This document shows, piece after piece, positions 26,229 through 30,763 of a stretch of DNA of 59,174 nt. Below the pieces are notes generated by a model. That model did not search any database and had not been told where the DNA came from. It saw only the letters and a program-made list of their open reading frames with translations. The stretch spans positions 1 through 59,174 of the forward strand of contig JAHIWS010000016.1 of NCBI GenBank assembly GCA_018815925.1, given 5' to 3'. Every line of letters starts with the position of its first letter. Positions within the stretch are counted from its first letter, which is position 1. This DNA comes from Nanobdellota archaeon (GTDB lineage: Archaea; Nanobdellota; Nanobdellia; Pacearchaeales; GW2011-AR1). Position numbers and translations under genes: made by a program.

Positions 26229-27044
26229 ATGACTAAAATAATTCCACGAGATTTAATTAAACATCTGGAATGGAAACCAGGACAAGCGACAGCTCCGATT
26301 ACTCCTGCTACTAATTTTGTTCCTCAAAATATAGGTAGTTTTAACACGGATAATGTTAATTATAGTTTTTTAGAAGGAGATGTTGGAAGACAAGTTTTAG
26401 AAGAATATAATCAATTAGTTCAAAGGGAATATCAAAATGCTTCTGCATTGCAAAAGCTATCTTTTGCAGGTGATGTTGTTAAGGGAAGTAATCCTTTTGC
26501 TTTTGTTTTATTAAATAAAGTTTTACAGAATCACGGAAAATGGGTTGCAAGACCAGTTGATCTAGAGAAATGTTTAAAAGAAGGATCTTTAAATTTGAGG
26601 GATACTTATGGAGATTCTGGTTTAGTTTTAAGAAGTGAAAATAATCCTAATGGATATTTAGCAGAGAATTTAGCATCTCAAGTAAAGGGAAGAGGCTATA
26701 ATGTTGGAGGAGATGCTGTGATGATTCCCTTAGCTGGGTTTGATTTAGCATATGATTCAAATTCTCCTCAAGATTTAGTTTTTCAGTTAACAGATTCTAG
26801 TGAGATAATTTATGCTCCTCAATTAAATAAAATAAACCCTATCAAGAAGTTTAATGGTGCAGACGAGCAAGGACTCCCTATTTTTGAGGATGCTGGATCA
26901 AGAACATTGTATTCAAGTGAGGATGAAGGACTTTGCAGGCTGTACCGTTACGGGGATCTGTATCTGAACGCCGGGGACAGGGATCTTGCTGATTCGGACG
27001 AGGACGGCCGGGTAATTATTTGTGCCGAAGGCACGTCGTCGTAA
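26229..27044 (+). CDS. DGR2 hypervariable target protein 1
   Basis: Shared N-terminal MTKIIPRDLIKHLEWKPGQATAPI tag; C-terminal VR3 LYRYGDLYLNAGDRDLADSDEDGRV. Confidence 0.88.
   Translation: MTKIIPRDLIKHLEWKPGQATAPITPATNFVPQNIGSFNTDNVNYSFLEGDVGRQVLEEYNQLVQREYQNASALQKLSFAGDVVKGSNPFAFVLLNKVLQNHGKWVARPVDLEKCLKEGSLNLRDTYGDSGLVLRSENNPNGYLAENLASQVKGRGYNVGGDAVMIPLAGFDLAYDSNSPQDLVFQLTDSSEIIYAPQLNKINPIKKFNGADEQGLPIFEDAGSRTLYSSEDEGLCRLYRYGDLYLNAGDRDLADSDEDGRVIICAEGTSS
26939..27014 (+). repeat. DGR2 variable region VR3
   Basis: Aligns to TR2 with A-only substitutions. Confidence 0.92.
27022..27034 (+). promoter_or_regulatory. Post-VR hairpin GTGCC-GAA-GGCAC
   Basis: 5-bp stem, 3-nt loop; stem differs from the VR1/VR2 hairpin by compensatory change. 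Confidence 0.75.
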
Positions 27045-27065
27045 AATTAGGAGGATAAAAATAAA

Positions 27066-27956: not shown

Positions 27957-29900
27957 ATGAAAAGTATGAATTTATTATTAAATGAAGCAGAAAGGAATTG
28001 GAGAGATGAAGTTAGACGAGACTTTCCTTTGCGTAGTGATACTTCTGTTGTCAAGCAAAGTTCTCAAAATGGAAGAGATTGGTTATTTTCAACAGATCTT
28101 AAAAAAATTTATGCAGATATTTCTAACGATGCAAGTCTACAGAAAAAGTTCCAAGAAGTTATAACAAAATATTGGGATGGTAATCCTGAAGAATTAGCAA
28201 AAGAAACTTTACATTATTTATTGCACCATGAATTATATCACCCCATTGAAGCACCTTTTAGTATAACTGGTGAAGGTAATGATAATAAAAAGATTCATCA
28301 ATCTATTAGGAGAGGAGCTCTTAAAGCAGAGCCAGCCCTTAGTGCTTTGGAGCAAGTTACAAAAGTTCAGGCTTCCCAAAATGGAGTTAAAGATTTTATA
28401 TTAGATAATCGTTTTGCCTTGGATAATCAAGAAAAAGGATATGTTCGTGAAGATATTATTCCAACTTGGGATTTATTAGAATTGCAAGACTCTCCTTCAA
28501 AAACTAATTTTTATACTGTTACTAGGTTTTTATATGGGGCAATGTATGGGCCTGAAAGTACTCATAGATTTTTTGAAGATAAATCTGGAGAAAAGGGAGT
28601 TGAGATTGCAGAGAAATCATTGAGCGCCTTGACTAAAAAACCTGTTAAATTGCCAAGACAAAAAGGGTTAGTAGGTAAGGCTAAATCCTTGTTAGGTAGA
28701 AATCCTAAACAAGATACAAGTGAAAGGATGCAACAATACATAAAAGATGTTAGGGAAGTTTTTTCTGGAGACGATAGATATGCTGGGATTGAGCGTTTTA
28801 TGTCTATTTTAGGTCCTTATGTTGAAAAAAGTATGCCCCAAGGAAGACCAGATATGCAAGGTGCAGAAAGTGGAACTTCTCCACAAAATATTTTACAAGA
28901 TTTACTTGATGATATGGATCCTCAAGAGCAACAGCAATTTGTGCAAGATTTGGCTCAAGAAAAACCAAATGCTTTAGAGCAAGCTGTATCGGGGACCCCA
29001 ATGCCTCAAGAATCAAGTGCAGATGAGATGAAAAATTTAGATTTATTGGCAACTCACGAATTCTATAAGAGAAATCATCCAAAGATTAAGATTGTTGGTG
29101 GAAGCAAAGTTGGAGAGAGTGTTGTAGTAGGAAAACAAGAATATTGGAATTTAAAGAGGACCACGGTTTTAACAGAAGATCAACTTAGTAAAGTTAATCT
29201 TAATAGGATTAATAAATTACAAAAAAGAACAAGGTTACCTTGGCTTATTAATTTAGGTAATAGCACTTTTAGATTAAATGAATACGAACTTAAAGAACAT
29301 AATTTGAAAGATGTTGTTTATGTTGATTCCCATATTGATGTTCCTGATATGGTTGAGTTTTATCTTGATAGCTCTGGTTCAATGTTTGGTAACGAATTCA
29401 AAGTTAATGATGGAAGTAGATGGGATATGTTGAGTAATGTTTTGTATGGTTTTGTTGATGCTTTGGGGCAAGGAGGCAAACAATTAGGAAAGAAGACAAA
29501 AATGAGGGTGCATAATTTTGGAGATAAACAAGTAAGTTCAGAGATTGTTCCTGTGGATAAGTTTTGGAAAGGAGATACTGCAAGTTTAAAAACTCTCTTT
29601 AAGCCTGCAAATGGTTATAGTAAAGAAGATATTAATTTGACCCATTATCGTGATGGAAGGCAAAGAACTTATGTTGTTGTCACAGACGGGGAATTGGTTA
29701 TTCCTGGAAGAACTGCTCGTGAATCCAGAAAGATGAAAGAGATAGCCCAAGATCATAATAATAATGTTGTATTATTTGAAATTGGTGGAACATATGATTT
29801 AGGTAAGGCTGTTAAATCAGACTCTAGTATTGTTTATCATCAAGTACATGATAAAAATAAAATGCTTAGTGCAGGTTTGGAGGTGTTGTTATCAAAATGA
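27957..29900 (+). CDS. VWA-domain protein with N-terminal HExxH metallopeptidase-like domain
   Basis: LLHHELYHPIEAP (HExxH); FYLDSSGSMFGNEF MIDAS DxSxS; TYVVVTDGEL. Confidence 0.82.
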   Translation: MKSMNLLLNEAERNWRDEVRRDFPLRSDTSVVKQSSQNGRDWLFSTDLKKIYADISNDASLQKKFQEVITKYWDGNPEELAKETLHYLLHHELYHPIEAPFSITGEGNDNKKIHQSIRRGALKAEPALSALEQVTKVQASQNGVKDFILDNRFALDNQEKGYVREDIIPTWDLLELQDSPSKTNFYTVTRFLYGAMYGPESTHRFFEDKSGEKGVEIAEKSLSALTKKPVKLPRQKGLVGKAKSLLGRNPKQDTSERMQQYIKDVREVFSGDDRYAGIERFMSILGPYVEKSMPQGRPDMQGAESGTSPQNILQDLLDDMDPQEQQQFVQDLAQEKPNALEQAVSGTPMPQESSADEMKNLDLLATHEFYKRNHPKIKIVGGSKVGESVVVGKQEYWNLKRTTVLTEDQLSKVNLNRINKLQKRTRLPWLINLGNSTFRLNEYELKEHNLKDVVYVDSHIDVPDMVEFYLDSSGSMFGNEFKVNDGSRWDMLSNVLYGFVDALGQGGKQLGKKTKMRVHNFGDKQVSSEIVPVDKFWKGDTASLKTLFKPANGYSKEDINLTHYRDGRQRTYVVVTDGELVIPGRTARESRKMKEIAQDHNNNVVLFEIGGTYDLGKAVKSDSSIVYHQVHDKNKMLSAGLEVLLSK

Positions 29901-30763
29901 CAAAAATAATTCCACGAGATTTAATTAAACATCTGGAATGGAAACCAGGACAAGCGACAGCTCCGATAGTTAATCCTGCAGTTCAATCTATAAATACATC
30001 ACAAGGAGTTAATTTTCCTGATTCACCTCCAGAGAGTTTTCTTATGAGTTATGATGGACCTCATGCGGATTATTTTCAAGAATTAATTTCTAAGGTCAAT
30101 GAAAGATTTGGGGGCACAAGAGCAGAAATCCCGACAGGAACTTCTGGCGAAGTTCAAAACATGTATGCTATTAAAAGAATGGCTTTGGTTTCTGCAATTG
30201 TAAATAATCCAAGTTTACAAGGTCAAGAATTTTATCCAATTACTCCAATGCAAGATGAATTTTTGCTTAAAGCAAGTAAGCTTCCTGATCCAAGTAAATA
30301 CTGGGAAGATTTAGCTTTATTATTATATGATACAAATGGGAATAATCCTAAAGAAGCACAAGCATTGAAAGAAAGTATTGTTCAACATAGGATTGATTTA
30401 GGTTTAAGTCGTAATGATTTAGAAAAGAGATTAATTATTGTTGGTGCTGGTGGAGAGGTTGATTTGAGTATGCCTCATGGAGTTAAACCTATTATAATCC
30501 CAGGAATTACTCAAGTTTATGCTCATGAAATTCTAAATAGGATTGGAGAGAATCATAAATTTGAATATGGTTTAGATAGGGGGCTTCCTACTTTTAGTGA
30601 AATAGGTAATGGGACAAGAACTCTTTATATGCCTAGTGGAGATGACATTGGATTACGTGTGCTGTACCGTAGCAGGGATCTGTATCTGTTCGCCTGGGGC
30701 AGGGATCTTGCTAGTTCGTACGGGAACGGCCGGGTAAATTTTGCGCGTAGCGCGTCGCCGTAA
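29897..30763 (+). CDS. DGR2 hypervariable target protein 3 (paralogue of target 2)
   Basis: Same N-terminal tag; VR5 LYRSRDLYLFAWGRDLASSYGNGRV. Confidence 0.88.
   Translation: MTKIIPRDLIKHLEWKPGQATAPIVNPAVQSINTSQGVNFPDSPPESFLMSYDGPHADYFQELISKVNERFGGTRAEIPTGTSGEVQNMYAIKRMALVSAIVNNPSLQGQEFYPITPMQDEFLLKASKLPDPSKYWEDLALLLYDTNGNNPKEAQALKESIVQHRIDLGLSRNDLEKRLIIVGAGGEVDLSMPHGVKPIIIPGITQVYAHEILNRIGENHKFEYGLDRGLPTFSEIGNGTRTLYMPSGDDIGLRVLYRSRDLYLFAWGRDLASSYGNGRVNFARSASP
30659..30736 (+). repeat. DGR2 variable region VR5
   Basis: A-only differences from TR2. Confidence 0.92.
30743..30753 (+). promoter_or_regulatory. Post-VR hairpin GCGC-GTA-GCGC
   Basis: Same as VR4. Confidence 0.6.

What the first reader, a model, noticed from the sequence alone, without database searches (positions are those of the whole stretch)
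26229..29970. Identical 24-residue N-terminal tag on the three DGR2 targets, conserved at nucleotide level
MTKIIPRDLIKHLEWKPGQATAPI begins all three proteins with just one synonymous difference (act/aca) in about 71 nt, while the bodies diverge strongly (26229 is barely similar to the other two). DGR1 targets lack it. Near-absence of synonymous drift implies recent gene conversion or constraint on the nucleic acid. As a protein it looks like an addressing/docking peptide linking variable effectors to MoxR-VWA or to the secretion system.
Basis: partly seen in the sequence, partly recalled or inferred. Interest (0 to 1): 0.72.

Follow-up and report, generated by a model that had tools for sequence, protein, structure and literature searches.

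The report
Machine-matched address tag on variable receptors
Three rapidly mutating recognition proteins of a tiny archaeon start with the same short peptide, and relatives show that this peptide changes together with the neighbouring MoxR/vWA ATPase machine rather than with the recognition protein it sits on, so it is probably the plug that connects variable receptors to that machine.

Summary
Confirmed: the 24-residue tag opens exactly three genes in this genome, all targets of one diversity-generating retroelement (DGR2), nearly identical at DNA level over strongly diverged bodies. Comparative searches separate two things. (1) The protein tag (IP-x4-I-x-HLEW-x-PGQ plus a proline-rich linker) occurs in other archaea and one CPR bacterium. 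It sits on at least three unrelated bodies and, except in one remnant locus, only beside the same MoxR-type ATPase family. In archaeal genome G305, targets with the same AvpA-like lectin body carry a different shared tag, and both the ATPase and the HExxH-vWA partner are replaced by distant analogues. In 22 other loci the same body has no tag and neither machine nearby. So the tag follows the machine, not the body. (2) DNA identity is local copying, not nucleic-acid constraint: four loci, plus a virus related to one of them, show it; four others have many synonymous differences. Best explanation: a docking peptide attaching hypervariable receptors to their MoxR/vWA-metallopeptidase machine. 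Binding itself is untested; AlphaFold models failed. A T4SS address is not supported: the same tag occurs in tailed-virus loci without T4SS genes.

The parts
26229..26300 (+). Tag, copy 1 (24 codons)
26301..27044 (+). Target 1: linker plus body, 20% identical to targets 2 and 3, ending in a DGR variable region
26939..27017 (+). Variable region of target 1
   Evidence: 12 of 13 mismatches at TR adenines
27066..27137 (+). Tag, copy 2
27138..27941 (+). Target 2: proline-rich linker plus receptor body with C-terminal VR
27835..27910 (+). Variable region of target 2
   Evidence: all 10 mismatches at TR adenines
29897..29968 (+). Tag, copy 3 (overlaps the end of the vWA gene by 4 nt)
29969..30763 (+). 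Target 3: linker plus receptor body with C-terminal VR
30657..30732 (+). Variable region of target 3
   Evidence: all 12 mismatches at TR adenines
24646..26223 (+). MoxR-type AAA+ ATPase, proposed receiver of the tag (Walker A GVTGVGKT, Walker B LFIDEIN)
   Evidence: (AAA_5 15.6 bits, below cut-off)
27957..29900 (+). Partner protein: conserved HELYH (HExxH) near the N-terminus and a C-terminal vWA with DSSGS motif
   Evidence: no Pfam match
22863..24044 (-). DGR2 reverse transcriptase
   Evidence: RVT_1 1e-22
24076..24151 (-). DGR2 template repeat (core)

Best explanation
The tag is a short N-terminal docking (address) peptide. A probably helix-forming IP-x4-I-x-HLEW-x-PGQ segment, joined by a flexible proline-rich linker to a DGR-diversified lectin-fold receptor, plugs the receptor into the co-encoded MoxR AAA+ ATPase / HExxH-vWA protein machine. 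Any body that carries the matching tag can use the machine, so bodies can be exchanged and hypervariable binding sites can drift freely. Ligand binding by the receptor would be relayed through the tag to the ATPase and then to the putative metallopeptidase-vWA partner. The tag co-evolves with its own machine and is kept uniform among the targets of a locus partly by recent gene conversion. Shown: distribution, specificity, modularity, tag swap and copying. Inferred: physical binding, that MoxR rather than vWA is the direct receiver, and the signalling step.
For: Specificity: with the 23-position tag profile over 371 genomes, every hit with E below 1e-7 is a target gene beside this MoxR, except one remnant locus (G410); the next hit is at 3.7e-4. 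Spread: the same MoxR and tag occur in other archaea, a viral contig and a Doudnabacteria contig. Several bodies: AvpA-like lectin bodies, the window/G061 bodies (9-18% identical to those) and the Doudnabacteria and G401 bodies. Swap: G305 targets are 55-58% identical in body to G240/G265 targets but share a different 28-residue tag, beside a different MoxR-type ATPase and a different HExxH-vWA protein, with the same gene order; G436 and G305 share an integrase about 70% identical. No machine, no tag: 22 contexts with the body but no tag show no ATPase or vWA of either type. Module independence: G410 target 2 has a body 77% identical to G466 target 1 but a G265-type tag. MoxR is the more constant partner: G274 has MoxR and a tagged target but no vWA protein in a 92% complete genome. 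The linker is proline-rich in all copies. The related AvpA crystal structure (body match E 2.7e-14; fold begins at residue 8) has no match to the tag.
Against: No binding evidence. AlphaFold models of target and vWA failed (pLDDT 32 and 34). The G305 swap is one genome (two loci), so tag, ATPase and vWA exchange could be one historical event. In G410 tagged targets survive without either partner, although that locus looks degraded, with transposase-like ORFs around it. The tag resembles AbrB/MazE proteins locally, which would allow an oligomerisation or DNA-related role instead.
Confidence: 0.7

Rival explanations
1. The tag is a leader recognised by the HExxH-vWA protein: it is clipped, or marks the target for clipping in the linker, which releases or activates the receptor.
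For: The partner has an invariant HELYH in eight loci, and the unrelated partner in G305 has HEFGH. The tag is N-terminal and followed by a proline-rich linker.
Against: G274 keeps MoxR and a tagged target without any detectable HExxH-vWA protein. No conserved cleavage-like motif was seen in the linker alignment. Peptidase activity is unproven.
Confidence: 0.13
2. The tag is an oligomerisation element that makes the targets of a locus assemble with each other, for example as a reduced AbrB/MazE-like element.
For: Local similarity to AbrB/MazE proteins: next-best genome hits, Pfam MazE_antitoxin for one of them, hhalign 94.8% over 18 columns. Targets usually come in pairs with matching tags.
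Against: The match covers only about 16 residues and the comparison set was chosen from tag hits. The flanking strands of an AbrB domain are missing. G274 has a single tagged target. Exchange of the tag together with the ATPase is not explained.
Confidence: 0.1
3. The 5' DNA/RNA sequence itself is under constraint (translation, regulation or a DGR-related element).
For: Near-absence of synonymous differences in the window, G061, G265 and G244; four rare codons (CTG, CGA, GCG, CCG) kept in all three window copies.
Against: G240, G466, G436 and Doudnabacteria pairs differ at 11, 9, 3 and 4 synonymous codons of 20. The tag persists in G274 and G401 loci without an adjacent RT. Odd codon usage is matched by 31 of 974 neighbouring windows.
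Confidence: 0.03
4. The tag is a signal for export by the neighbouring type IV secretion-like machine.
For: Window and G061 loci lie beside VirB4-like and pilin genes.
Against: G265, G240 and the viral contig carry the same system among terminase, portal and capsid genes without VirB4 or pilin.
Confidence: 0.03

Closest known systems
MoxR-vWA ternary conflict systems and their effector-associated domains (Kaur et al. 2020, PMC7159879)
   Same: MoxR-type ATPase paired with a vWA protein, variable proteins in the same operon, sometimes DGR-diversified or FGS/C-type-lectin type; small shared N-terminal modules couple components.
   Different: No VMAP, iSTAND, FtsH or beta-propeller component was seen. 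The shared module is a peptide of about 20 residues matching no Pfam adaptor, on lectin receptors. Hosts are single-celled DPANN-type archaea, a virus and one CPR bacterium.
DGR-diversified sensors with MoxR in multicellular bacteria (Dore et al. 2024, PMC10907252)
   Same: DGR target next to a MoxR-like ATPase, C-terminal CLec variable region, N-terminal extension without known domain.
   Different: [quoted passage not shown] Here a MoxR plus HExxH-vWA pair, mostly below Pfam cut-offs, is linked to DGR targets in such archaea, with a machine-specific tag. Whether these RTs belong to clade 5F was not tested.
AvpA, nanoarchaeal DGR variable protein (PDB 5ioo; Handa et al. 2016, PMC5006420)
   Same: Body of many tagged targets is homologous (E 2.7e-14), including the RFxGV end.
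   Different: AvpA starts its fold at residue 8 and has no tag or long linker.
MoxR p618 / vWA p892 of Acidianus two-tailed virus (reviewed in PMC4124505); vWA-AAA pair of halovirus Hardycor1 (PMC7911831)
   Same: MoxR-type ATPase and vWA protein encoded by archaeal viruses; in ATV they interact and p618 is assigned a chaperone role.
   Different: No DGR or tag reported there; sequences of the present family are distinct.
AbrB/MazE/SpoVT swapped-hairpin proteins (PF04014)
   Same: Local IP-x-helix-L-x-W-x-x-GQ motif of about 16 residues.
   Different: Flanking strands needed for the fold are absent; specific homology not demonstrated.

Membership tests
Diversity-generating retroelement (DGR2) | Reverse transcriptase next to a template repeat | tested here: met
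   RVT_1 1e-22; TR at 24076-24151 -
Diversity-generating retroelement (DGR2) | VR/TR mismatches at template adenines | tested here: met
   10/10, 12/12 and 12/13 core mismatches at TR A
Diversity-generating retroelement (DGR2) | Lectin-fold variable protein | tested here: inconclusive
   Combined target profile matches AvpA at E 2.7e-14; the window target alone has no match; AlphaFold model failed
MoxR-vWA ternary system | MoxR AAA+ ATPase | tested here: met
   Walker A and B conserved in all loci; AAA_5 only 15.6 bits for the window copy, below cut-off; ATPase-B of G305 AAA_5 1.4e-12
MoxR-vWA ternary system | vWA partner with MIDAS motif | tested here: met
   FYLDSSGSM in seven of eight loci, DSSAS in one; no Pfam VWA hit for the window family; vWA-B sub-threshold VWA hits
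MoxR-vWA ternary system | Third component (VMAP, iSTAND, FtsH or beta-propeller) | tested here: inconclusive
   No such gene recognised in the locus; PADLOC and NCBIfam give nothing for its proteins, but no VMAP model was searched specifically
Effector-associated (EAD) adaptor domains | Match to a known adaptor-domain model | tested here: not met
   Tags match no Pfam adaptor; only MazE_antitoxin at E 0.095 for one of 14
Docking peptide for MoxR/vWA | Physical binding of tag to MoxR or vWA | not testable with these tools
   No complex prediction or assay available
AbrB/MazE swapped-hairpin domain | Full beta-alpha-beta hairpin of about 45 residues | tested here: not met
   Only the IP-helix-GQ segment aligns; a proline-rich linker follows

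The most novel reading that the evidence does not exclude
A plug-in receptor architecture: hypervariable DGR receptors carry interchangeable N-terminal address peptides, each specific to one MoxR/HExxH-vWA machine, so that machine plus tag and receptor body are exchanged as separate modules between archaeal viruses, integrative elements and even a CPR bacterium. At least two mutually exclusive tag/machine pairs exist.
Probability: 0.5. Interest if true: 0.82.

Novelty: new variant of a known kind. Interest (0 to 1): 0.7.

Why it matters
How DGR-diversified proteins are connected to an output is unknown for most cellular DGRs. A short, swappable, machine-specific tag gives a direct handle: it identifies the partner of the receptors, predicts specificity pairs (tag 1 with machine A, tag 2 with machine B), and makes the proposed relay from hypervariable lectin to MoxR ATPase testable in vitro with small proteins. 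It also places a MoxR-vWA system with DPANN-type DGRs, which a published survey reads as lacking such partners, and inside tailed archaeal viruses.

Tried and rejected
Nucleic-acid constraint rejected by synonymous divergence in four loci. T4SS address rejected by viral contexts. Foreign-codon argument for recent import: suggestive (p about 0.006) but 31 of 974 neighbouring windows are as odd, not used. PADLOC, NCBIfam and PDB searches of tag and machine proteins gave nothing informative. MoxR not found in the phage or plasmid collections nor in 379 other genomes of the Doudnabacteria phylum. Resemblance of the 32376 ORF start (MTKRQIIPSNIIK) to the tag judged chance: its homologue in L006 lacks it. 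Relatives of ATPase-B beyond G305 are more distant MoxR genes; none of the eight contexts read showed tag 2.

Full report
Observation. The peptide MTKIIPRDLIKHLEWKPGQATAPI opens three ORFs at 26229, 27066 and 29897 and occurs nowhere else in the genome. The DNA is identical between genes 1 and 2 for 71 nt from the ATG plus 3 nt upstream. Gene 3 differs at codon 2 and gene 1 at codon 24. Bodies are 20% (gene 1 against the others) and 57% (genes 2 and 3) identical. Among codons encoding the same residue, 1 of 24 in the tag and 36 of 100 in the body differ between genes 2 and 3 (p = 0.001). All three are true DGR2 targets: their C-terminal variable regions differ from the template repeat on the minus strand (24076-24151) almost only at template adenines.

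Gene order. The locus reads MoxR-type ATPase (24646-26223), target 1, target 2, a 647-residue protein with HELYH near its N-terminus and a vWA DSSGSM motif (27957-29900), then target 3, whose start overlaps the vWA stop. MoxR and vWA are so divergent that Pfam sees them below cut-off or not at all, which may be why such loci have escaped annotation.

Relatives. The same MoxR family is in 9 of 371 genomes sampled from the phylum, the window's own included, in one viral contig and in one Doudnabacteria contig, a CPR bacterium. No other genome among 380 sampled from the latter's phylum has it. Every such locus has at least one tagged target next to MoxR or the vWA gene, usually in the order MoxR - target - vWA - target. 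The 14-sequence tag alignment has M1, I5 and W15 invariant, and P6, I10 and H12 nearly so. A proline-rich linker follows every tag.

Specificity. Searching 371 genomes with the tag profile alone gave 17 hits between 4e-16 and 9e-10, all in targets of these nine MoxR loci, plus one at 1.8e-8 in G410, a locus with two targets of the same kind but no MoxR or vWA and with transposase-like ORFs on its flank. The next hit is at 3.7e-4. Housekeeping proteins do not carry it.

Tag follows machine, not body. Searching with the AvpA-like body without its tag found 35 genomes. Twenty-two loci with the body but without tag were read with about 6 kb of context where the contig allowed: none has the MoxR, the vWA protein, or their G305 analogues. 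G305 is a natural swap. Its five targets in two loci have bodies 40-58% identical to G240/G265 targets (best matches 52-58%), with position orthology kept, but all start MKSKQDYL[RK]MLFGEP[KR]ARE[EQ]N. The adjacent ATPase (AAA_5, 1.4e-12) and HEFGH-vWA protein are only remotely similar to the window's pair, in the same gene order. G305 and G436 share an element integrase about 70% identical but carry different machine/tag sets. Within tag 1, G410 target 2 combines a G466-type body (77%) with a G265-type tag. The Doudnabacteria and G401 bodies differ again.

Copying. In the window, G061, G265 and G244 tag copies of one locus are identical or differ at one synonymous codon of 20, although the tags differ between these genomes; the viral contig L038, close to G265, behaves alike. 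In G240, G466, G436 and Doudnabacteria the two copies differ at 11, 9, 3 and 4 synonymous codons. So DNA identity is not a general requirement; recent gene conversion or copying of the 5' end is the simpler explanation. Bodies follow position across genomes, tags follow locus in the converted loci.

Direct partner. Of MoxR and vWA, MoxR is the more constant companion: G274, 92% complete, has MoxR and a tagged target but no vWA homologue. This is one genome and does not settle the matter. The type IV secretion-like pilin and full VirB4 beside the window locus are shared only with G061; G265, G240 and the viral contig have the same cassette among terminase, portal and capsid genes. The secretion reading is therefore not supported.

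Nature of the peptide. After the true tags, several of the best genome hits are small AbrB/MazE-like proteins that share the IP-helix-W-x-x-GQ segment; hhalign gives 94.8% over 18 columns. This set was picked from the hits, covers only part of the fold and is only a hint that the tag may derive from, or mimic, that helix-turn element.

Mechanism proposed. Shown: a modular tag with strict machine association and one machine-plus-tag exchange. Inferred: binding of tag to MoxR (or MoxR/vWA), ligand sensing by the variable lectin domain, and output through the putative HExxH-vWA partner. Published schemes for MoxR-DGR conflict systems (PMC7159879, PMC10907252) propose sensor-to-MoxR-to-effector relays; virus-borne MoxR/vWA pairs can also be chaperones (ATV p618, PMC4124505). 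Whether the output is defence, attachment or virion maturation is open.

Limits.

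Noticed in passing
L018, L019, L038: The MoxR-target-vWA-target-RT cassette sits inside the structural module (terminase, portal-MuF, capsid) of tailed archaeal viruses or proviruses, targets in opposite orientation to the structural genes; L038 is an IMG/VR contig.
   Followed up: partly
L018:11429-11692 (-), L019:6789-7064 (+), L038:7421-7684 (+): Small conserved protein with an AbrB-like sequence (IGVLVTREAKAIGLKSGSKVQV) between RT and MoxR in the viral loci; possible regulator of the cassette. Pfam gives no AbrB hit.
   Followed up: partly
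L117:7552-9385 (+), G245: MoxR followed by three short proteins that share mainly an N-terminal MT[LI][DE]KL[LI]K[KQ] start: a possible third tag type.
   Followed up: partly
L114:205-996 (-), G353: A single FGS/CLec-like protein directly after a MoxR gene, with an N-terminal basic helix-like stretch and a glycine/proline-rich linker; possible further tag/machine pair.
   Followed up: no
window:14888-17296 (+): DGR1: two tagless targets followed by an RT fragment of 165 aa; the genome has another RT on contig C18, so DGR1 may be inactive or served in trans.
   Followed up: partly
window:18723-22801 (+): T4SS-type pilin, membrane protein and VirB4-like ATPase with an extra C-terminal domain, plus tyrosine integrase at 32645-33817 (-): an integrative element whose genes are shared with G061 (L008).
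   Followed up: partly
L036 (G410:C48): Remnant locus: two AvpA-like targets, one with a tag and one truncated at its 5' end, with transposase-like ORFs upstream and no MoxR, vWA or adjacent RT.
   Followed up: yes
L022 (G436), L079 and L080 (G305): The same mobile-element backbone (XerC-type integrase about 70% identical) carries MoxR-A/tag 1 in one genome and MoxR-B/tag 2 in the other.
   Followed up: partly
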